Shown: one piece after another, positions 27,345 to 49,900 of the stretch
How positions within the stretch are numbered: the stretch's first letter is position 1
How the letters are laid out: every line of letters starts with the position of its first letter
Assembly (NCBI RefSeq): GCF_026210795.1
Contig: NC_089446.1
Location: forward strand, 2,447,001-2,511,000
DNA: 64,000 bases
Direction: 5' to 3'
Source of the DNA: Rhizophagus irregularis
Lineage: Eukaryota > Glomeromycota > Glomeromycetes > Glomerales > Glomeraceae
Program-made: the position numbers and the translations under genes
The notes under the pieces: generated by a model
What the model was told of the DNA's origin: nothing
The model's input: the letters and a program-made list of their open reading frames with translations, nothing else
Database searches by the model: none

Positions 27345-28086
27345 ATATTCGCTGATTCACAGAATTTACCGATCATTAGTTATGTGGTGCAGTACCGATT
27401 AAAATCGATCAAAATCTGTTCTTACATAAGAAAAAATGTCAAAAAATATATAAAAAAACTTTTAAGACCTTTCCCAAAATATTTACCTCTTTAACCTGAA
27501 GCTAGTAAAAGAAGTTTCTAGAAAAAAAAGGAAAAAATATTATAAAGTTAGTTTATTAAAAAAATAAAAAGAAAAACTTTACAAAATTCAGAATATTTAA
27601 TAATTTAACGAAAAAAAATTAACTGAAAAATAATTAATAATAAATATCAAATAAATTTTAATTAAACAACTAATCAATACATAATCTAAATTTGCTAAAA
27701 TATTGTTATTAATATTTGAGTTATTTATTTATTAAAAGATTTTTTTTGAATAATTTTGCTTTCTAAATAAATTTTTTCTATAAACTATAAAAAAAAAATA
27801 AAAAACAGCTCTAAGTTATATCTAATATAATATAATTACTAATATACTTGCAAAAATTCTTAACTTACTTGATGTAAAAACTGGTTGAAAAGTTGATAGG
27901 GAAGTTGATGGGGAGTTTAATAGAAAGTTTACAAAAGAAAAAAATTTTTTAACGCTACTTTTTGTTGAAGTAATTTCTTGATATTTGTCATATGATCATG
28001 TAATACAAGTGTGATCATTTTTGCAAAACTTAATTTATCTAATTTTTATTAAATTATTGTCAAATTCCTTAATTTAGACAAATTTT
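27345..28086. mobile_element. Element X copy 2, interrupted by the Plavaka-like element
   Basis: The left end, ATATTCGCTGATTCACAGAA, matches the ends of copy 1 at 16121-17245. The interior GGTTGAAAAGTTGAT repeats and the CATATGATCATGTAATACA stretch match 17010-17160. The right terminal segment is missing here but reappears at 37738-37767 (TTAATTTCACAGATCGGTGG), after the 9.65-kb insertion. Copy 2 is therefore older than the insertion. Confidence 0.6.
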
Positions 28087-28560
28087 CATCAGGAAATTAT
28101 ATAGTGCGAAAAGTTGTGCAAGTTTACACATCATAATATTTCGTAAGCTTCCAGACCCGCTGCAAGTTTGCATAAGCGTAATATTTTGTAACTTTTTAAA
28201 ATATTTCGAAATATTACGATATGCAAAGCTTCATAATTTTACGATTTGTAATATTCTGTAATTTTGCAGTTCGCAATATTTCGTAATTTTACATAATATT
28301 TTGTAAGTTTTCAGACCCGCCGCAAGTTTGCGTAAGCGTAATATTTTGTAACTTTTTAAAATATTTCGAAATATTACTGTATGCAAAGCTTCATAATTTT
28401 ACGATTCATAATATTCTGTAATTTTACTGCGTAATACTTCGCAACTTTTTAAAATATTTCGAAATTCTATGATGCGTAATGCTCCATAATTTGACGATTC
28501 GTAATATTCTGTGATTTTACACAACTTAATATTTTGTAATATTTCAAAATATTTTGATAA
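28087..28560 (+). repeat. Left terminal and subterminal repeats of the Plavaka-like element
   Basis: A unit of about 160 bp, recognised by CAGACCCGCCGCAAGTTTGC, repeats two and a half times from 28151. It is packed with CGTAATATTTTGTAA and AAATATTTCGAAATATT motifs that also make up the right-hand array. Confidence 0.8.
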
Positions 28561-29340
28561 ATAATACTTCATTTTCTGTACTATAAGTTTATATAATGTA
28601 TGTTTTATTAGATATAATTTTATTAAACCATAAAAAATTACAAGTATTTATTAATATATACAGAATACATAAAAGTAAAAAAAAGAAAGAGTAGAGTAAC
28701 AATATTATTAGACGTAAAAAGAAGAGAAACAGCTATAGTAACGTTAGTATTAGATATAAAAATAAAAGAAATATTGTTATTATTGTTAGTATTAAGGTAA
28801 AAAGAGTTAAAGAAACAGTAAAAGGAGTAAAAGAAACATGGATATTATCGTTAGTATTAAAGTACAAGTAAAAAGAAATAAAGGAAACGTAGATAGTATT
28901 GTTAGTATTACGACATAAAGTAACAAAGAGGTAAAAAAAAAAACGCGTTAATATTAAAATAATTAGTATTAATAAATAAATATTTCTATACCTGCAAAGT
29001 AATTGAACAAAGGAATAAAGAAATAAAGAGAAAGGAAAAAATAAACATGTTGTTAGTATTGTTAGTATCGTTAGTATTAAAGTACAAGTAAAAAGGAATA
29101 AAGGAAACATGGATATTATTGTTAGTATTACGATACAAAATAACAAAGAGGTAAAAAAAAATGAAAATAATTAGTATTAATAAACAAATATTTCTATACC
29201 TGCAAAGCAATAAATTATGAAATATATGTAAATATATTGTATATAATTAAAGAAATAATAGAAAGAAGAGACAAAAAAATTAAAAATATTGAACAAAAGA
29301 ATAAAGAAATAAGAAACAAAAATAAATAAGACAAAAACGT
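28561..29340. repeat. Degenerate GTTAGTATTA-rich tandem stretch
   Basis: Phrases such as ATTGTTAGTATTA, AAAGTACAAGTAAAAAG and AACAAAGAGGTAAAAAAA recur with changing spacing between about 28690 and 29200. Minus-strand open frames over it (28733-29210) are Leu/Phe/Thr-rich repeat translations, not supported as genes. Confidence 0.6.
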
Positions 29341-29660
29341 GTGCATGATTAAATGATTAAATGATTAAATCACATGCAAGGATCAGCCTAATTTTGATTG
29401 GCCAGAAAATACGATATCGTAAAATTATGGAAATCCGCATTTTAAAAAATCACAGAAATTGTATATGCACAATTACTAAATATCATCTCCTCGTGATAAA
29501 TTAAAAATTATCAACACAAATTCAACACAAATTTAACAAATTTAACGAAATTTGGCCAAAATTAACAAATTTTTACCAGAATTATCAACACAAATTGAAC
29601 ACAAATTGAACACAAATTTCAGCCACGATTTATTTATGTCACACCCGTGTTGTTAAGAAT
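29341..29660 (+). repeat. Inner inverted repeat, left arm
   Basis: From TTACTAAATATCATC to ACACCCGTGTTGTTAA this arm is the inverse of 35385-35595, about 90 percent alike by eye. Weaker complementarity extends outward to about 29341, against 35960. It holds repeated ACACAAATTGAAC units. It directly precedes the 3' end of the accessory gene. Confidence 0.85.
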
Positions 29661-29742
29661 TAATAACCATTTTATTTATTAAAACTATATTAATTATGAT
29701 AAAAAAAATGCTATTACGTGTGATATATATAAAAAATAATAT

Positions 29743-31129
29743 TTATTTCTTATGCAACCCATAATTCTCTAATAAACTATTTACATACCGACCTTCCTCC
29801 TCCGTGTTATAAGAGTCAATAGAAAGTATATCATCGTCAGCTATGCAATCGTTAGCCGCACTATCGTTGGCCGCACCATCGTTAGGCCTACCATCGTTAG
29901 TCGCACCATCGTCAGCCGCACCTGCTCCATCGTCAGCTGCTCCATCACCACCATCATCTACATTATTACCATCATGAGAATCGTCATCCAAATGTGTAAA
30001 TTTATCCCTATTTTCCAACTTTTGCTAAAAATCAATAAATAAATAAATAACTGTAATTCAAATAATTCACATTTTGCAAATTGTAAATTAAAAACTTACT
30101 AAGTTGTTGATTATCTTCGACTTCATTATACTTTCGCTCATTTGAATGTTTTAATTATTAGGATTTAAGTACGTTTCACATATGCTAATCGCATACGCTA
30201 TTTGTGTTTTTGAGGGATTTTTATTTTCTTTTCGCAACTTATCAATTATCAGCGACATATATATCGTAGATTACCCATCTTTAACCTTTTTAAATAGGTT
30301 GTTGTAACATCTTTTCACCTCCGCTTTACTCTTCCATTCCTGAATCTTTGACGGACTAGCCTGAGTGTTAATAGACGGTAATTTATGCCCAGTCACTTCG
30401 AAAACAGAATACATAACGTCTTTGACTCTAGACGTGAACGTCCCTCGTATGCTTCTATGTTGTTGTACTAACTATTAAAAAAAAATGTTAGTATGAAATT
30501 TAATAAAATTCATAATTGCTTTAACTTACAGTCGGGGCAATTTTTTTTTCAAAAAAAATAATCCATTGATTTTTTTTGAACTGGCGCATAAATTCCAGAT
30601 TTTCGTCTTTTAAATATTTTTCGGTAGCGAGTTTGTACTCGTCTTGCGAAGGATAAACAAAATTTTCAAATAAAATTTTCGACACCTTCTTAACGAGCTC
30701 CTAATCAAACGAGGTTAGCATTTCAGGTTTACATTAAATAATATTCATCTTTATTACCTTTACATACTCCGGATCTATTGTATTATTATTATTTTTGTTA
30801 TTATCGTTGAGCTTTTTTTCTATGCTTGAGAGACGGGTTTCGAGATTTTTTTGTTTAGTGATAAGAACTTCAAGCTTAGAAATTATCTGCGAATTGGTTC
30901 TTAATAGTTTTTCTATTGCTTTTTTATTAACTTTAACAATAAAATATAATTTAACTATATATTATATAATTTCTTTTATAAAGAATATGATACATATCAT
31001 GTCATATATACCATCAACGCTATCATCGGATATTCTCACTCGCTTCTCAGCTTCGCTACCCTCAGTACTATGTTTTGAAAATCTTTCATTATCGTCAATT
31101 CTTCGTTTCTCACCACGCTTTGTAGCCAT
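29743..31129 (-). pseudogene. Five-exon accessory gene of the Plavaka-like element, two stops
   Basis: Start at 31129; exons 31129-31012, 30930-30758, 30700-30530, 30471-30100 and 30024-29743. All four introns are GT-AG and phases agree throughout, giving about 371 codons. The N-terminus (MATKRGEKRRIDDNERFSKH) is basic. Exon 2 is a coiled-coil-like helix (LLRTNSQIISKLEVLITKQK). Exons 3-4 are a helical domain with LVKKVSKILFENFVYPSQDE and GTFTSRVKDVMYSVFEVTGH. Exon 5 is acidic with DDGAA/NDGAA repeats. In-frame TAA codons at 30271-30273 and 30151-30153 disable it. I recognise no domain. It is divergent from the transposase and ends just inside the inner repeat, so it is probably a transposon accessory protein, possibly nuclear. 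Confidence 0.7.
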
Positions 31130-32252
31130 TATGATAATAAATTTGAAATGAAAATATGAGAAACTGAAAAGGAGGAAATATATGAGAAAAAGGAGGAAAT
31201 ATATGAGAAAAAAGAGGAAATATATGAGAAAAAGGTGAACTAGAAAATTTGAAAAGGATGAGAAAAAAGGGGAAATACATGAATCAGAAATTCAGAAAAA
31301 GGAGGCAAGCTGTCATATAGTAATTTCCGCCATTCTATACTAAAAAAAAAAAACTTGCGAAATATTGCAAAAAATGGATGAACTAATGCGAAATATTACG
31401 AAAAATGAATGTACTAATGCAAAAATTTTGCATCGTGATATTACGAAAAAATATTGTAACACTTTCATAAGAGAACTTTAAAAAAAAACTCTCGTAAAAG
31501 CACATAGTACAATCGAAATATTAATCAAATCCAATTTATAAAAAAATAACATGTTACACATGTTGGGGCTTTTATGCATGGAAAAAAAAAGTTGCAGCCA
31601 GTGAACTCATTTGGCTGATCAGATTGATAGTGATCTTGAGCGCTTATAACTTGATTATCGCATAAATTTGTGGCTGATCATCCGTCCATTATTGTAAAAG
31701 TGATTTGCCGTGTTAAGCCAATAAATTTGCGGCTGATTATCAGATGATTAGCCGATTAAATAAGCCATCCGAATTCTTACAGCCCGTTACAGCAAATTCA
31801 AAATATGCGAAACACTCAGCACTTTAACTGTCAGATTCACTTGGCAGGTTGCCGGCAAATTGAAATAGTAAATAAAATAATAAACAATATTTATATGGTA
31901 CATCATAGACTTGTTACATTTATTTTTAGATTTGCCAACCCACGAACTCGGCAAGTTCCTGACAGCAAAATTGCTGAGTGTTTCGCATATTTTAAATTTT
32001 GCTATAATGCGTAAAATTGCGAATGATTCCACGATATTAGCCACCAGATTCTTACAGCCAGTTCCATTCATTAATGCGTAAATTTGCGTAGTCGTGTTTA
32101 TTCAAATAACTCAATCAATTGTAATCCATTCAATTAATTCATTAAATTTTTACAATGAATTTGCAATATAATTTTATTAGCACACATAATCTCATATAAA
32201 TTAAATAGTGAATTGATACTTTTCAACAAATTTGACGCGTTAATTTAGTAAC
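31130..32252. promoter_or_regulatory. Bidirectional promoter region between accessory gene and transposase
   Basis: This 1.1-kb stretch separates the two divergent starts. It contains three units of GGAGGAAATATATGAGAAAAA at about 31170-31230, several TGCGAAATATT motifs like those of the terminal arrays (31350-31450), and an inverted-repeat insertion at 31792-32002. No obvious TATA box can be singled out in such AT-rich DNA. Confidence 0.45.
31792..32002. mobile_element. ~210-bp inverted-repeat insertion in the promoter region
   Basis: GCAAATTCAAAATATGCGAA then ACACTCAGCA on the left matches the inverse of the right end at 31970-32002. Complementarity continues imperfectly inward as CTGTCAG and TTGCCGGC-like pieces. 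A direct ATTCTTACAGCC repeat lies about 20-45 bp outside each end (31772 and 32048). No coding capacity. Confidence 0.65.
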
Positions 32253-35200
32253 ATGAGTTTCAAATGCCCCCTTTGTATGTGAATATTCAGTCAACGCTTT
32301 GCATATACTCAACACGCCCAAAAATGCTTAAAAAATGTAGAAGTAGAAGTAGAAGATGATGATGATAATAATGATAGTGAAAAATATAGCAGTAAAATGG
32401 ATACAAGAAGTGATCTAAGTAGTGAATATGAAAATGATAAAGTTGAGGTAATTATGTTATTCCAGATTATTCTTTTTAAAGAAAAAGCTCAATAATTATG
32501 TTATTCCAGATTATTCTTTTTAAAGAAAAAGCTCAAATTATACTAACTCATTTTGGTTTATAATTTTAGGTGGATGATGATAATAATGTACAAAATATGT
32601 CATTTGACAGTATTGGAAGTGCAATATCAGTGATGAGCCTTGAAAATAGTAACTTTGAAAATATATTAGATTCATCTGAAGACCCTGAAATTTTTGAAGA
32701 ACCCAAAAATCTCAATACCAAAACTTGCACAGAATTTCCTAATGATGCTTATAAAGATCTAATGTTATTAGTAACGAAATATAAAATAAACAATAAAGGT
32801 GGTAATGAAATAATACGTTTTTTTAATAAACATTCAAATCTTACAGAATCACCATTACCAAAAAATATTGAACAGGGACGAGCATTTATGAATAATATGA
32901 AGTTTTCTAATTTAGAATTTAGTAAAGTTCTTATAACAAAACATAAGGATAAAGATTATTTTCTTTATTATCAAAACTTAATACAGTGCATCAAAAATAT
33001 CTTAACTGTTCCTGACATAACACAAAATTTTGCGCTATCTTACGAAAACTATGAGGTAAATAGTAAATATTAGTTAATTCAATAATTTAAATAATATTTA
33101 TTTTAATTTATTTATATTATTTTATAGTATAATAGAGAAAGTATTTACAGTGAACAAAACACTGGAAAATGGTAGAAAACTACGCAAGAATCCTTACCTA
33201 CTGGTTCCAAATTATTATCAATTATTTTATATTCAGATGCAACAACTACAGATACATTAGGAAAAAGTCAATTGCATCCAATATATATTTCATTAGGCAA
33301 TAACCCAATATGGCGTCGTAATAAACAGGATGCAAAGCAACTTTTGGGATATTTACCAATTTTAGAAGCTGCAAATAAAGATCTGATTCGTAATACCTTT
33401 CATAAATCTTTACGTCATTTACTAGAACCAATTATTTTATTAAAAAATGGTATAGACCTTTTTATAAATAATGAAAATACCTGGTTTTATCCTAGAGTTT
33501 CAACTATTATTGCAGATTGGCCAGAAGCCGCAAGTTTTTGTTTAGTTTATAAATCCTCCAATTCAAGCCTTCCATGTCACTCCTGTTTAATTAAAAGGGA
33601 CAATCTTGCAAATATAAACTTATCGGTTAATGATGTAATACTAAGAACTCATGATGAAATGCGTAAATATTTTGAAAATGATACACAAAAATCTGTTTGC
33701 ATAGAATTTGTACCTAATTTTTTTTGGGATTTGCCGTAAGTATGCAAAAGTAGAAATAATTATAATAACATATATATATATTAATTATAAATATTTATAT
33801 TATCAAGGAATATAAATATCTACTTGGCTACTGTTCCTGACAGAATGCATCATTTAGATTTGGGTTTATTTCGTTATCAAATTATCTTCACGTGCGATAT
33901 CTTAAAATTGCAACATGTTAATGGTAATAAATTAGTTGAAGAAGTAGATCGCTGTCTAGCAGCAATTCCACGTTTTCCCGCCATTAAAATTTTTTCCAAT
34001 GGATTGCAGTCAATTGCAAGATTAACTGCTAATGAATATCGAAGTTTGATGAAAGTCATGATATTTGTTATTGATAATTTATATGATGAAAATAATAACG
34101 AAGTAGATAATTTTGTAAATAATAATGATCTTGCGAAATTGTACGAATATTGGAATGAAATGTATATTTTAAGTAGATATGAAGAATTTAGTGAAAGTGA
34201 CTTGGAGAAATTTAATGTATGTATTAAAATTTTAGTAAAATCGAAAATTTAAATTAAATAAATTAAATTAACATTTAAATTTTAGGATGCAATACATAGA
34301 TGGGCGCGGATATTTGTCAAGGCTTTTAAATTTGTTTCTCCTTCCAATTTGAAGTTGCCTAAATTGCATTCATGAGTTTATCACATTATTGACTCAATAC
34401 GATCTTATGGCGCAATAAATGGCTATACCACAGAAACTTACGAAAGTCTTCACAAATATTTCGTTAAAATACCCTACCGAATTAGCAATAAAAAAGATGT
34501 CGAACCTCAGCTTTTACGAACTGTAAGTATTTGGAAATTTATTTATTGTATATATTTATTATATAACTTAAGATGGAAATTAAATTAATAGATAAAACGT
34601 CAAGCAATATCTATTAGAATGTCTCAACATTCCGTGAATCCGGCAAAAATACCTCGCACTTGTAAATTTTCTGCAAAACTCTTTGATTTCTCTTTACAAG
34701 ATGCAAATACATTTTTTAATGAAAAAAAAGATTCCGTAGACAATAAAATGCAGACCGGTTTTGCTAGATTTATAAGTTGTCTGGATTCATATCTAGATTT
34801 ACTTGATGGTTTCACAATTATTGGTGAAACCCGAATAAACATATACGGATCGGTAATACTGGAAAATGGTGCCATAATGCATGCCACAAACAGGTATCAT
34901 AATAAAGTATGGTTTAGCGACATAGCTATTTCAATGGATTCTGAAGAATCAAATGATTATATATCAGACAAAGGACTTTGTTATGGACAGGTATTTTTCC
35001 AATTTATGTAATAATTTATTATAAAGTATTAATAAATATTTATTATTTATAGGCCTTATTGTTAGCAGAAGTATTAACAGACCCACCGCTAAATCTCGCA
35101 TTAATTCAATGGTACGATTTTAAATCTAAAAGGAACCCATATTTATATGGATGTCTACTCACTTAAAATTGATAGAATTATATAACTTTGTAGCTATAGA

Positions 35201-35279
35201 GTCTATACATGGTGTCGTTCACATAGTACCCCGATTTGATAAACAAAATGAATATTTCGTAAATAAATATATTTTTTAG
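32253..35279 (+). pseudogene. KDZ-superfamily (Plavaka-like) transposase, seven exons, inactivated
   Basis: Exons 32253-32447, 32570-33055, 33128-33735, 33808-34216, 34286-34522, 34592-34990 and 35053-35279, with GT-AG introns and matching phases. The N-terminus is a zinc finger: CPLC, FSQRFAYTQHAQKC. The catalytic core follows: YSDATTTDTLGKSQLHPIYI then SLGN, LLGYLPILEA, CHSC, VPDRMHHLDLGLFRYQ (second acidic residue), and YTTETYESLHKYFVKIPYRI (candidate third acidic residue). The C-terminus has ALIQWYDFKSKRNPYLYGC. Lesions are TGA at 32280, TAG at 33173, TGA at 34373 and a frameshift near 35160. The expected length of about 850 residues is complete, so this was the autonomous transposase. 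The Plavaka assignment is from motif memory. Confidence 0.8.
32449..32536 (+). repeat. 44-bp tandem duplication inside transposase intron 1
   Basis: Two identical copies beginning TAATTATGTTATTCCAGA, starting at 32449 and 32493, doubling most of the intron without touching the splice sites. Confidence 0.9.
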
Positions 35280-35384
35280 TCACTTGATATAGGAGTTTTG
35301 ATTTATTTTAATAAAATTATATCCTTAAAGAATTTATGGTCACGTTTCCCATATCATAAATAAAATGCAGATTTATTTATTTAA

Positions 35385-35960
35385 TTATTAACAACACGGG
35401 TGTGATATAAATAAATCGTGACTGAAATTTGTGTTCAATTTGTGTTCAATTTGTGTTGATAATTCTGGTAAAAAATTATTAATTTTAGCCAAATTTCGTT
35501 AAATTTGTTAAATTTGTGTTGAGTTTGTGTTGAATTTGTGTTGCGTAATTTTTTATTTATCACAAGGGGATGATATTTAGTAATTGCATGTATAACGTAC
35601 AAGATTTTTTTTTATGATTTTTTTAAGAAATGTATGCAAAATATTTAATCAGAATATAATTGTTTTATTTTTAAATATGATATATTGATGATTTTTTTTA
35701 AAAAAAAAATTGATTTTTTTAAAATTCAATAGAATGTGCTAATAATAAATTGGTTTATTTTTAAATATAATATATTGATATTTATATTTAAATAACCAAA
35801 ACATGTACATGATTTTTAATTATTTTTAATTGAAATCAAACTAAGATTTTTTTTTAAAAAAAAATTAAAATAAATTAAGTGATTTATATTTATATTTAGA
35901 ATCATGATATTTATATTTAGATAATCCATATCCGCATGAGATTTAATTAATATGTTTAAT
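35385..35960 (-). repeat. Inner inverted repeat, right arm
   Basis: Inverse of the left arm at 29341-29660. The core (35387-35595) is well conserved; from 35600 to 35960 the match is broken by A/T-rich insertions, including two diverged copies of a TTTATTTTTAAATATxATATATT stretch. Confidence 0.8.
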
Positions 35961-36118
35961 GATGAAAAGTCTAATAAATTAAATTTTAATTGAAACGAGA
36001 AATAAAATCAAACCAAAGAGGTATTGTTCAAATTTTATTTAAAGTGACATTTTACGACTTTCTTTCAAATTTTTACTCATCCCAAAATCAAATTATAAAA
36101 ATCAAATCTAATCTAATA

Positions 36119-36741
36119 ATGCCTCGCCACACACGTCGTCATTCCCACTATAACGTCCATTGGAACTGGGCTATGATGGACGAACTTGTTGACATACGCG
36201 AGACAGAAACCGCGCCTATCACAATATTAATGGTAGAAGCCGCCAAGATTTTTGGAACTCTGTTGCCAATAGGTTTATATAACTAATATCTATAATTTCT
36301 TTAAGAAAGAATTTAAATTCAAATTAACCAATCCATTTAATTGAATCAGAATAAATAGAATATTTCGAACGAGGGTTTCCGGGTAACAGTGCAGCCAAAG
36401 TGGAGGAACCTCGTCAGGGATTACCATGTAAGTAAATAAATAAAATTACATTCATATAAATTAAATGTATTTACCGAATATTCAAACTGATTTTGATATT
36501 TAGAACTATGTCCTTTATCGTAATGGTAACCCTGGGCGGCGGCTGTGAACGCGTACTGGCGCAAGATATTATCGCGAATTTAGAACGAGATTTTGGGAAA
36601 GGCCGGGTAATTATACTATAATAAAATTTATAATTAATATTTACGTTCATGTTTTAAATTTGATAAATTTGATCAATTTTAGTTACGCGTGATGATTGTA
36701 GGGCAAGGAGAAACTTACCTACGTATCGTAGAAGAAGATAA
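36119..36741 (+). pseudogene. Small basic gene in the right arm, Myb/trihelix-like
   Basis: Probable exons are 36119-36272, 36350-36425, 36504-36606 and 36683-36741. Exon 1 reads MPRHTRRHSHYNVHWNWAMM then DELVDIRE and ILMVEAAKIFGT, a Trp-spaced helix pattern like Myb/SANT or trihelix DNA-binding domains. Exon 2 has VQPKWRNLVRDYH but only in a shifted frame. Exons 3-4 give NYVLYRNGNP, a TGA at 36545-36547, TRTGARYYREFRTRFWERP and a terminal RNLPTYRRRR. It is more GC-rich than its surroundings. It lies between the inner repeat and the terminal array, so it moved with the element. The DNA-binding role is inferred. Confidence 0.55.
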
Positions 36742-36764
36742 TTATTTTTATTTTTTTATTATTT

Positions 36765-36895
36765 ATTAAATGAGTAGCTAGGCCCAGTCCGTACCAAATA
36801 TCGGCTGGAGACTCACGTTTTTTTGGGCTGTGACTGATACTGACGTCCACGCCGTACAGCCTGGGTACTATTTTATAAAATAGTAGCGAACAAGT
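36765..36895. repeat. GC-richer dispersed repeat
   Basis: The segment includes GGCCCAGTCCGTACC, GGCTGGAGACTCACG and GACGTCCACGCCGTACAGCC, closing with a TACTATTTTATAAAATAGTA palindrome. On the minus strand it translates as RLYGVDVSISHSPKKRESPA, a phrase I associate with many short repetitive Rhizophagus proteins. It may be a SINE or MITE; no ends were defined. Confidence 0.5.
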
Positions 36896-37109
36896 ATCAA
36901 ATGTGTATTTTTTTATTAAGTTATAATAAAAATTAGAATTTACTTTAATTTTTAACATAAAAATTGTAAATAATAAAAAATTCGTAAATAAAAATAAATT
37001 TGCTTTCTCAAACTTAAAAAAAAAGGTGTTTATATAAAAGAAAAGGTGTTTATATTATTTTTGATTATTCAATAGTATCACATACCCCTTGTATACGTTC
37101 TACTGCATA

Positions 37110-37737
37110 TGCAGTTTACAATCTCATAAATTTTCGAAATATTTCAACCGTAATATTACGCAGGTTTACAGTTTTGTAAATTTTCGAAATATTTTAACCG
37201 TAATATTACGCAGGTTTACAGTTTTGTAAATTTTCGAAATATTTCAACCGTAATATTACGCAGGTTTACAGTTTTGTAAATTTTCGAAATATTTCAACCG
37301 TAATATTACGCAGGTTTACAGTTTTGTAAATTTTCGAAATATTTCAACCGTAATATTACGCAGGTTTACAGTTTTGTAAATTTTCGAAATATTTCAACCG
37401 TAATATTACGCAGGTTTACAGTTTCGTAAATTTTTGAAATATTTCAACCGTAATATTATGCAGGTTTACAGTTTCGTAAATTTTCGAAATATTTCAACCA
37501 TAATATTACGCAGGTTTACAGTTTCGTAAATTTGCAGAATATTTTGACCGTAATATTGCATAAATCTTACGATATTGAAAACTTACGTAATATTTTAACC
37601 GTAATATCACATAAATCTTACGAAATTGTAAGCTTGAGTAATATTTTGAAATTTTTCGAAATATTATGCCATAAACTTTTGTAAACTTACAAAATCGTAA
37701 ACTTACGCAATTTTTCGCGCTATAAAATTTCCTGATG
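37110..37737 (-). repeat. 50-bp tandem array and right terminal repeat of the Plavaka-like element
   Basis: About eight to nine copies of a 50-bp unit (CAGGTTTACAGTTTTGTAAA, then TTTTCGAAATATTTCAACCG and TAATATTACG) run from about 37110 to 37556. They then decay into related motifs up to the terminus. Sequence identity falls towards the terminal end. Confidence 0.9.
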
Positions 37738-37923
37738 TTGTTAATTTCACAGATCGGTGGATATGATATTATTTTTAACTTTTAAATTTAATAAAAGGGT
37801 TTTATTTTTTATTATATTTATTTACAATATATTGCATCTTTATATAAAAGTCAAAAACAGCAATTTAATTCTTTTTTAATATATTAAGTAAATTGTAAAA
37901 TGTAAAGTAAATATATATATATA

Positions 37924-38882
37924 CAGTCAACTCTTTTTATAGTCACACATTTGGGACAGTCCATATTTGGTGATTATAAAGAAATGTGACTATATAAAAA
38001 ATTTCTTATATTAGTATATCATAATTCCGGCCAAAAATTAACATAATTTTGGTCAAATTATACTCAAAACTTTATTGTATTGTAACTCCGCCAATATTAA
38101 TCGTAGAGAGATGATCTTACCGCCATTCGATTCGTCTCGATGAGACGGTTCTAATGGTATAAAATACATCGAAATCCAATCACTAGATTAATTTCCGAAA
38201 TTAAAAAATATTAATGGTTTTTGTGTAATAACTCTGCCAATATTGATCCTAGAGAGACAATCTTACTACCATTCGATTCGTCTTGATGCGACAAATCTAA
38301 TGGTATAAAATACATCGAAATCCAATCACTAAATCAATTTCCGAAATTAAAAAATATTAAATAGTTTTTAAGTGGTAACTCCCGTCAATACGATCCATGG
38401 TAGATGAGCTTACCACCATTCGATTCGTCTTGATGAGGCGATTCTACCGAGCTATTAATCGTCTTTTTACAATCACTAGGTACTGAGAAATTTAGTAAAA
38501 TGTTAAACGGCGCAGTAAATGTAAATCAAGAAATATAATAATGCCAATGCTTACCGTTTTGTTGAATAACTCATCAGCCAGTGATTGTAAAAGGATAAAA
38601 CTACTACCATTTGATTCATCTCAGTGAGACGATTCTAACAAGCTATGGTACATCTTTGTACAATTATTAGATGCCAAGTTATTTAATATATTCTTTATAT
38701 AACTGTGATTATAAACGGTTTTTTTTAATATAAGATTTTTGAGGATAGGTGTGATAGTGACTATAGATAGATTGTAACTATATAGGATAGATTTTAATAA
38801 TAAAGTGTTTTGAACATTCGACTAGTATGACTATATAGTAGAATGTGACTATAACAGGAGTAACTATAAAAGGAGTTGACTG
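37924..38882. mobile_element. 959-bp pogo/Tc1-type element with four internal modules
   Basis: The ends are CAGTCAACTCTTTTTATAGT and the inverse of CAGTCAACTCCTTTTATAGT, flanked by TA. Four diverged direct copies of a module of about 145-195 bp start at about 38081, 38227, 38370 and 38565. They open with AACTC and contain CCATTCGATTCGTC and CCAATCACTA-type phrases. No coding frame is present, so the element is non-autonomous. Confidence 0.85.
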
Positions 38883-48889: not shown

Positions 48890-49792
48890 TTAAAGATAAT
48901 AAATAGTGCCAACTGTGCCATCATCTTGCCTACTATTATCTAACCCCTCGAAAATTGATGGATTTATACCAACGTCAGAACTTCCATAGTAAAACGAATC
49001 AAATTCCCATGTAGGGGTAGAGGTAAGTGGCGGTTGCTGAAATATAAATAAATCTTGCATATGTGGCTGTCGTGTTAAAGCATTTTCTGTATAATTTGTT
49101 GACGTTACCGTTTGTAATAATTGAGGAATGAGCTCATCGCTTAATGCTTGAGGAATTTGCTCACAGTAATTTTCCGAAGAGTAACAATCATTATCATAAA
49201 AGTAAAGACTGTTATCGACTTGGGAAGGGTTAAACCAATTTCTATTTTCTTGTTCTTGTAAAATTGTTGAAGTAGGAACACTTTTCTGTTCTTCCGAAAC
49301 GTGTTGAACAACAGCTCTAGATTCAGGTGAAGCTTTTCTTTTCTTTTTGCTCTTATTTTGTGTTATTAAACCAGCATCGTAGACAATGAAATCTTCTTCT
49401 GCAGTTTTTCTTTTTCGTCTTTCATAAGTGTAATTTGGGTATTTCTCGCGATGTCTCCTCTTAAGTTCTTCAGCGATAAGAGAATAACTCCTTTTTTCAT
49501 TTTTACTTGCACCATTCCAGATAAATGACGCTGCCGTTGAAATAACCCTACCATCATCAGATGTTTTATGCAATTTTGCAACGTGAGCCAGTTGGCGCCT
49601 AAATACAATGAAACTGTTCATTTCTCGTGGAACTGTTCCTTTCTCTGGCATTTGTAATTCATCAGCCGAGCGAGGGCAAGGAAGCAAATTCTTTTTGTCT
49701 AACTTTTTTATGAATTCAACAATATTGGGAGGCGGTGGGTTTCCATTTTTGTCTTTCAATGACCATTGTTCTGATAATTGAGATAAACTCAT
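48890..49792 (-). CDS. MATA_HMG-type HMG-box transcription factor
   Basis: Intronless frame of 300 residues. Residues 55-124 form an HMG box of the MATA_HMG class: PREMNSFIVFRRQ opens helix 1, FIWNGASKNEKRSYSLIAEE covers helix 2 and its loop, and KRRHREKYPNYTYERRKRK closes helix 3 with the conserved YPxYxYxRRK ending. RRKRK (125-129) and KSKKKRK (147-153) are likely nuclear localisation signals. The C-terminal half is Gln/Ser/Tyr-rich with acidic patches, suitable for transcriptional activation. Such proteins bind DNA in the minor groove; in other fungi they include mating-type and sexual-development regulators, and Rhizophagus has many copies. The start at 49792 follows a TATATAAAA-rich leader. 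No stop or frameshift: the best candidate for a working gene here. Confidence 0.9.
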   Translation of the reverse strand: MSLSQLSEQWSLKDKNGNPPPPNIVEFIKKLDKKNLLPCPRSADELQMPEKGTVPREMNSFIVFRRQLAHVAKLHKTSDDGRVISTAASFIWNGASKNEKRSYSLIAEELKRRHREKYPNYTYERRKRKTAEEDFIVYDAGLITQNKSKKKRKASPESRAVVQHVSEEQKSVPTSTILQEQENRNWFNPSQVDNSLYFYDNDCYSSENYCEQIPQALSDELIPQLLQTVTSTNYTENALTRQPHMQDLFIFQQPPLTSTPTWEFDSFYYGSSDVGINPSIFEGLDNSRQDDGTVGTIYYL

Positions 49793-49900
49793 TTTTATAT
49801 AAAGCGTTCGTTTATATTTATGTTTAGAAGAGAGTATGAAAGAGATGAAAGCAATGAAAGCGATGAAAGGAAATAATTCTTTTTATATAAAAGAGAATTT
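49793..49900 (-). promoter_or_regulatory. Candidate core promoter of the HMG-box gene
   Basis: Reading on the minus strand, TTTATATAAAAAGAATTATT lies about 90 bp before the start codon, the best TATA candidate. A second TATATAAAA is only about 5 bp before the ATG and is too close to serve the same start. A purine-rich ATGAAAGAGATGAAAGCAAT stretch separates them on the plus strand. Confidence 0.4.

What the first reader, a model, noticed from the sequence alone, without database searches (positions are those of the whole stretch)
28087..37737. Complete relict KDZ/Plavaka-like transposon with accessory genes, caught inside another element
The matching termini, subterminal arrays, inner inverted repeats, a seven-exon transposase, a divergent five-exon gene and a third small gene form a coherent 9.65-kb unit. 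Its edges coincide with the break in element X, whose last 30 bp reappear at 37738. A KDZ-type element with two accessory genes and such layered ends in a Glomeromycotan fungus looks poorly described.
Basis: partly seen in the sequence, partly recalled or inferred. Interest (0 to 1): 0.78.

Follow-up and report, generated by a model that had tools for sequence, protein, structure and literature searches.

The report
Three-gene Plavaka transposon in Rhizophagus
A decayed copy of a recently multiplied jumping gene of a plant-root fungus sits inside another repeat; besides its transposase it carries two helper-like genes, one for a DNA-binding protein and one that often sits beside this kind of transposase in the genome.

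Summary
Window 28087-37737 is one complete mobile element with 41-nt inverted ends CATCAGGAAATT..AATTTCCTGATG and a TT duplication; four of four copies of the interrupted repeat X show the empty site. It is Plavaka (CACTA/EnSpm-related), not KDZ: Plavaka domain E 1.8e-36, PlavakaB-type ends and duplication. The genome matches the R. irregularis DAOM197198 assembly of 2023 in scaffold count, N50 and nearly in size. 251 ends of the family occur there (control 0); among 37 pairs from the 100 listed ends, 21 are full length and 10 are 3.5-4.1 kb. The window copy is a relict with all three genes broken. In 21 aligned full copies the transposase is intact in 4, the divergent gene in 3, the third gene in 12, all three in none. 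New here: the third gene encodes a Myb/SANT-like DNA-binding protein, not found in four distant Plavaka loci; the divergent gene encodes an uncharacterised protein found upstream of 81 of 123 Plavaka hits, including families with transposase cores 44-49% identical. Proposed: transposase cuts, Myb protein binds the subterminal arrays, the partner assists. Only anatomy and conservation are shown. A new variant of a known kind.

The parts
28085..28086 (.). left copy of the 2-bp target site duplication (TT)
   Evidence: empty site in 4 of 4 X copies fetched
28087..28127 (.). left terminal inverted repeat, CATCAGGAAATT...
28132..28560 (.). left subterminal array; core AATATTTCGAAA 5 times in the first 520 bp (both strands), 0 times in the 7.3-kb middle
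28638..29211 (.). further left-end direct repeats (65-, 104- and 54-nt families)
29470..29663 (.). left arm of the inner inverted repeat, beyond the 3' end of the divergent gene
   Evidence: I1, I4; cross-matches
29743..31129 (-). divergent partner gene, five exons (31129-31012, 30930-30758, 30700-30530, 30471-30100, 30024-29743); 381 aa in an intact copy (L003); two stops in the window copy
   Evidence: homologues upstream of other Plavaka transposases
31794..31999 (.). 41-nt inverted repeat (31794-31834 / 31959-31999) between the two divergent genes
   Evidence: I5
32253..35279 (+). Plavaka transposase gene, seven exons (32253-32447, 32570-33055, 33128-33735, 33808-34216, 34286-34522, 34592-34990, 35053-35279); 852 aa in intact copies; window copy has stops in exons 1, 3 and 5 and a frameshift in exon 7
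35381..35586 (.). right arm of the inner inverted repeat, beyond the 3' end of the transposase gene
36119..36741 (+). third gene, four exons (36119-36272, 36350-36427, 36504-36606, 36683-36741); 131-aa Myb/SANT-like protein in A-type copies; broken in the window copy
37064..37563 (.). right subterminal array of 50-bp units (limits approximate); 1 to 10 units counted in 22 copies
37697..37737 (.). right terminal inverted repeat, ...AATTTCCTGATG
37738..37739 (.). right copy of the target site duplication (TT)
37740..37765 (+). last bases of the interrupted repeat X, which continues from 28086

Best explanation
It is a DNA transposon of the Plavaka group, PlavakaB type by its ends, presumably moved by cut and paste. 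The transposase recognises CATCAGGAAATT ends and inserts into a 2-bp target, which is duplicated. The third gene encodes a Myb/SANT-like DNA-binding protein that most likely binds the tandem subterminal units and brings the two ends together or regulates the element, the job ascribed (recalled) to TNPA in En/Spm and to the Myb/SANT protein in Harbinger. The divergently transcribed gene encodes a conserved partner of Plavaka transposases, most likely an assembly or transport cofactor. The window copy jumped into repeat X, lost function and decayed mainly by C>T/G>A changes, at a raised rate at CpG, as methylated cytosine would give. Shown: borders, TSD, empty site, family, gene models, domain, conservation, decay pattern. 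Inferred: the binding and cofactor roles, the role of methylation, mobility today.
For: Ends and TSD. Plavaka domain 126.4 bits against a cut-off of 26.3. D, D and CxxC kept in 4 of 4 aligned transposase cores, HxxxxH in 4 of 5. Constraint: transposase 17 synonymous to 13 replacement fixed differences where 77% replacement is the neutral expectation; partner gene 31 to 45, ratio about 0.43. Myb_DNA-bind_4 E 3.6e-9, above cut-off; plant protein GT-1 in PDB at E 0.0076. Both ends share the core AATATTTCGAAA (5 left, 8 right, 0 middle); 92 shared 9-mers against a mean of 30 and a maximum of 64 in 200 shuffles. Partner gene in all 4 distant Plavaka loci read, one of them weakly; upstream and divergent at 81 of 123 Plavaka hits; 65 of 148 and 15 of 27 partner hits lie so within 6 kb, chance about 0.25% each (many hits are copies of the same families, so not independent). 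C>T rate 0.027 at CpG against 0.006-0.008 elsewhere.
Against: No binding or transposition was measured. Fixed differences in the Myb gene are 3 synonymous to 8 replacement (ratio about 0.83), so selection on it is not shown by counts; support is the domain and exon length differences of 3, 0, 9 and 3 between the A and B types. None of 21 copies keeps all three genes. 46 of 148 and 11 of 27 partner hits have no scored Plavaka hit within 20 kb, and 42 of 123 Plavaka hits have no scored partner upstream. The shared subterminal core is AT-rich and part of the likeness may come from composition. Of the 62 private C>T/G>A changes of the window copy only 22 are at CpG. The partner protein has no Pfam hit above cut-off and no convincing PDB hit, and the fold of one exon failed (pLDDT 45.6).
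Confidence: 0.72

Rival explanations
1. The two extra genes are passengers: the transposase alone mobilises the element, and the Myb and divergent genes are cargo without a role in transposition.
For: Two-gene relatives of 6.55 and 6.78 kb (L028, L031) have the same type of ends but no Myb hit better than E 3.4 in their 10-kb loci, so Myb is dispensable for Plavaka in general. Replacement changes dominate in the Myb gene. Part of the partner-gene hits lie away from any scored Plavaka.
Against: The divergent gene is kept next to distant Plavaka transposases and is under constraint. The Myb reading frame is intact in the most copies (12 of 21), though it is also the shortest.
Confidence: 0.2
2. 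A composite: an older two-gene Plavaka element (29470-35586, bounded by the inner inverted repeats) was swallowed by a second element that supplied the outer ends, the arrays and the Myb gene.
For: The inner repeats bracket the two-gene core, 6.1 kb long, close to the 6.55-6.78 kb of two-gene relatives. Short copies carry outer parts plus Myb without the core.
Against: The outer tips of the inner repeats do not carry the CATC(A/G)GGAAATT-like motif that the outer ends and L028/L031 share. Short copies keep most of the right inner arm, and four of the five junctions displayed have filler, so they look like deletions, not empty sites.
Confidence: 0.12
3. A KDZ (Kyakuja-Dileera-Zisupton) element, as the title of the finding suggests.
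For: An earlier review placed Plavaka near KDZ (stated in PMC12730594, passages).
Against: No KDZ model in the Pfam scan at E<=10; 2-bp TSD instead of 7 or 8.
Confidence: 0.02

Closest known systems
PlavakaB DNA transposons of fungi (Kojima 2025, PMC12730594; passages read)
   Same: Plavaka transposase, ends CATCA..TGATG, 2-bp TSD, CxxC and H(3-4)H motifs
   Different: Myb/SANT-like gene and a divergent partner gene; no TET/JBP gene found; 9.65 kb with long subterminal arrays and inner inverted repeats; Glomeromycotina, while the Plavaka families in the passages read are from Agaricomycotina
Plavaka of Rhizophagus irregularis (G3 2024, PMC11075540; passages read)
   Same: same superfamily and, by assembly statistics, same species; reported as particularly prevalent, and among superfamilies with more upregulated families in colonised roots
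   Different: the passages read give no structure, ends or companion genes; whether this very family is in their library was not checked
En/Spm (CACTA) with TNPA and TNPD (recalled)
   Same: related transposase clade, subterminal arrays, second protein suspected to bind them, internally deleted copies
   Different: ends not CAC..GTG, TSD 2 not 3 bp, DNA-binding protein is Myb/SANT-like
Harbinger elements (Nuwa lineage) with a Myb/SANT protein (PMC12730594, passage)
   Same: DNA transposon with a separate Myb/SANT-type DNA-binding protein
   Different: transposase is Plavaka, not Harbinger; TSD 2 bp, not 3

Membership tests
PlavakaB | Plavaka transposase domain (PF18759) over its cut-off | tested here: met
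   126.4 bits vs 26.3 (L023 protein); E 2.6e-18 for window exon 3
PlavakaB | termini 5'-CATCA..TGATG-3' | tested here: met
   definition from PMC12730594
PlavakaB | 2- or 3-bp TSD | tested here: met
   2 bp in 25 of 26 both-ended copies
PlavakaB | C(2)C and H(3-4)H motifs between second D and last E | tested here: met
   CHSC and HSWVYH in L023; CxxC invariant in 4 of 4 aligned; HxxxxH in 4 of 5, L030 has Y for the first H. Which residues are catalytic is inferred
PlavakaB | groups with PlavakaB in a transposase tree | not tested
KDZ | KDZ transposase model | tested here: not met
   no KDZ hit listed at E<=10
KDZ | 7- or 8-bp TSD | tested here: not met
   2 bp; definition
EnSpm (CACTA) | CAC..GTG ends and 3-bp TSD | tested here: not met
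   definition
TET+ Plavaka | TET/JBP dioxygenase gene | tested here: not met
   no such family among the Pfam hits of the three proteins
Harbinger with Myb/SANT protein | separate Myb/SANT protein | tested here: met
   PF13837 E 3.6e-9
Harbinger with Myb/SANT protein | Harbinger DDE transposase | tested here: not met
   only Plavaka over cut-off for the transposase

The most novel reading that the evidence does not exclude
Plavaka in this fungus is a multi-protein transposition system: transposase plus an obligatory, divergently transcribed partner of a protein family with no described domain, to which this family added its own Myb/SANT end-binding protein. The 3.5-kb copies, which carry only the Myb gene between the ends, would then be a self-standing lineage that makes its own end-binding factor and borrows the rest, and so can help or throttle the full copies.
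Probability: 0.3. Interest if true: 0.7.

Novelty: new variant of a known kind. Interest (0 to 1): 0.52.

Why it matters
Plavaka is reported as particularly prevalent in this widespread plant symbiont (PMC11075540, passages), yet my searches of the held library found no account of its ends or companion genes there. A defined family with known ends, young copies, deletion derivatives, a DNA-binding protein with candidate sites and a conserved partner gene makes Plavaka transposition testable, and its aligned copies give a gauge of C>T decay at CpG in a fungus known to CG-methylate its transposons (PMC8647823, passages).

Tried and rejected
KDZ membership: rejected on domain and TSD. Composite origin from the inner repeats: tips do not look like Plavaka ends, kept as a rival. 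The third gene read in the window copy alone gave an open frame without a Pfam hit; the copies showed that the window has two single-base losses there, and the copies' frame gives the Myb/SANT domain. Partner gene: no Pfam hit above cut-off and no convincing PDB relative, fold of one exon useless (mean pLDDT 45.6), so no fold search was made. Viral contigs: 42 pattern matches, none a relative of the transposase. Ends of L029 and L030 were sought and not found. PF13837 search of the own genome: of 246 candidates 150 were scored and listed; exon splitting works against this gene, so the list does not tell where else this Myb gene occurs. Decay wholly by CpG deamination: rejected, since only 205 of 457 pooled and 22 of 62 window C>T/G>A changes are at CpG. 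Target preference and dating in years were not attempted.

Method limits: searches of the genome scored only the best candidates (for example 40 of 152, 123 of 180), so counts are lower bounds. The gene-state counts rest on 21 full copies including the window; the last five were chosen partly because short searches had shown open frames, so fractions are not a random sample. Some single-base breaks may be assembly errors. In some searches the end of the third gene was set wrongly by me (therefore counts it as intact in none); one search corrects this. One search used 148 of 150 rows (two second pieces at listed loci dropped) and 27 of 32 rows (five loci already dropped). In one search the fixed differences of transposase and partner gene rest on 13 A and 3 B copies; for the Myb gene three A copies (L004, L005, L008), which carry B-like bases there, were left out, the short copies L013-L017 were added to A, and L019 was counted with B. 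In one search the partner gene of L018 was compared with L003 only, and its last exon (75% identical, repetitive) aligns less surely.
Full report
What was checked. The finding describes 28087-37737 as a complete transposon with layered ends and three genes inside another element. Repeat analysis confirms the outer 41-nt inverted repeats, the two subterminal arrays, and an inner inverted repeat of 153 plus 41 nt at 93-95% complementarity. The genome that holds the window (146,748,485 bases, 32 contigs) can be placed: the R. irregularis DAOM197198 assembly in PMC10234402 (passages) has 32 scaffolds, 146,773,001 bases and an N50 of 5,085,394, and contig 13 here is 5,085,394 long.

Borders. The end motif occurs 251 times with up to two mismatches, the reversed control pattern never. 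In 26 both-ended copies that I read, 25 have a perfect 2-bp duplication directly outside CATCA..TGATG (18 of 18, 3 of 3, 4 of 5; L035 lacks it). Four of four fetched copies of repeat X run through the site without the element..AATTTT|GTTAATT.., while the window has ..AATTTT[element]TTGTTAATT... The insertion into X is therefore direct and clean.

Population. Of the 100 ends listed, 37 pairs form: 21 of 9.3-10.0 kb, 10 of 3.5-4.1 kb, 6 longer than 10.1 kb. Over the gene region, 21 full copies differ by 1.4% on average, at most 2.3%. Two groups exist, called A and B here; they differ in the transposase (30 fixed differences) but hardly in the partner gene (1), which suggests exchange between them.

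Transposase. Seven exons with GT-AG sites give 852 aa with a Plavaka domain at 126.4 bits. It is intact in 4 of 21 copies. Fixed differences between A and B are 17 synonymous and 13 replacement, neutral expectation 77% replacement, ratio about 0.23. Distant relatives in the genome, 44-49% identical over the core, keep D, D and CxxC (4 of 4 aligned) and mostly the HxxxxH motif (4 of 5), as reported for the CACTA-Mirage-Chapaev-Transib clade (PMC12730594, passages). By ends and TSD it is of the PlavakaB type described there.

Third gene. Read in the window alone it makes no sense, because the window copy has lost two single bases there. Other copies give a 131-aa protein that matches Myb_DNA-bind_4 at E 3.6e-9, above the curated cut-off, and the plant DNA-binding protein GT-1 in the PDB at E 0.0076. 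Its four exons differ between A and B types by 3, 0, 9 and 3 bases, while an intron differs by 11. It is intact in 12 of 21 full copies and 1 of 6 short ones. Substitution counts (3 synonymous, 8 replacement) do not by themselves show selection.

Divergent gene. Five exons, 381 aa in the intact copy L003, with a coiled-coil-like stretch and an acidic repeat tail by inspection; intact in 3 of 21 copies. It matches nothing in Pfam above cut-off or in the PDB convincingly. But tblastn finds it in divergent orientation upstream of the transposase in the four distant Plavaka loci fetched (three at E 1e-12 to 1e-14; L029 weakly at 0.03 and then by alignment). Genome-wide, 81 of 123 Plavaka hits have such a hit within 6.5 kb upstream, many of them A/B copies; in the search with the L029 protein 15 of 27 hits were so placed within 6 kb, in the search with the L031 protein 65 of 148, against about 0.25% by chance. 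These hits are copies of a smaller number of families and so not independent. Against the link, 46 of 148 and 11 of 27 hits have no scored Plavaka hit within 20 kb. Some of these are missed pairs: the hits at C15:4025875 and C11:5189796 lie about 3 kb from transposase exons that one search lists. Others may be transposases lost or unscored, or an independent life of the gene. Constraint: 31 synonymous to 45 replacement differences between L018 and L003, ratio about 0.43.

Related elements. L028 holds a 6,555-bp and L031 a 6,784-bp element with ends like those here (CATCAGGAAATT/CATCAGTAAATT and CATTGGGAAATT/CATCGGGAAATT), 2-bp duplications and the two-gene core, but no Myb hit better than E 3.4. 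So the two-gene core looks older in this genome and the Myb gene an addition in this family; this rests on few loci.

Short copies. Six were read (L013-L017, L019; 3,337-3,659 bp). All lack about 29409-35396, that is both core genes, and keep the Myb gene and both ends. L013, L015, L016 and L019 share the same filler junction although L019 is of the B type in the third gene; L014 has another left breakpoint (the junction of L017 was not displayed).

Decay. In the window copy 62 of 80 private substitutions are C>T or G>A, 22 of them at CpG; pooled over 21 copies the rate is 0.027 at CpG and 0.006-0.008 in other contexts, and 205 of 457 such changes are at CpG. R. irregularis transposons are in general highly CG-methylated (PMC8647823, passages), so deamination of methyl-cytosine is a likely part of the cause, but more than half of the changes are outside CpG. 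Four copies (L004, L005, L006, L034) do not show a C>T majority.

Mechanism. Shown: a mobile family with defined ends, target duplication, a constrained Plavaka transposase, a gene for a DNA-binding type of protein inside the ends, and arrays at both ends that share AATATTTCGAAA (5 left, 8 right, none in the middle). Inferred: the Myb protein binds these arrays and the divergent gene's product assists the transposase. Neither is measured.

Novelty. The literature searches in the held library (listings, and passages of four papers) turned up Plavaka in R. irregularis but no description of its ends or companion genes, and no Plavaka with a Myb/SANT gene; papers outside that library and all supplements were not seen.

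Noticed in passing
genome G000:C7:3695084-3712697 and similar places on C14, C1, C18, C32, C13: Other Plavaka loci have several partner-gene hits in tandem, about 3 kb apart, on the same strand downstream of the transposase (30 such hits), some beside one divergent copy. Possibly larger elements with an expanded partner gene.
   Followed up: no
window 27800-28086 and 37740-37765; L024-L027: Repeat X: 39 other places at 90-94% identity among 40 scored of 80 candidates; a sharp end at GGATATG followed by unrelated sequence in the four copies read; its own kind was not determined.
   Followed up: partly
L013, L014, L015, L016, L017, L019: A 3.3-3.7 kb internally deleted form keeps only the Myb gene; the same filler junction occurs in A-type and B-type copies.
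   Followed up: partly
L035: The only both-ended copy read without a matching 2-bp duplication (TA left, AC right); perhaps a recombinant.
   Followed up: no
window 38072-38446: A direct repeat with 146-bp spacing just right of the element; the stretch 37738-38020 beside it has 704 candidate places in the genome.
   Followed up: no
window 48890-49882, minus strand: A 330-aa open frame with an HMG box (Pfam E 1.2e-8).
   Followed up: no
window 31794-31999: A 41-nt, 90% complementary inverted repeat lies between the two divergent genes.
   Followed up: no
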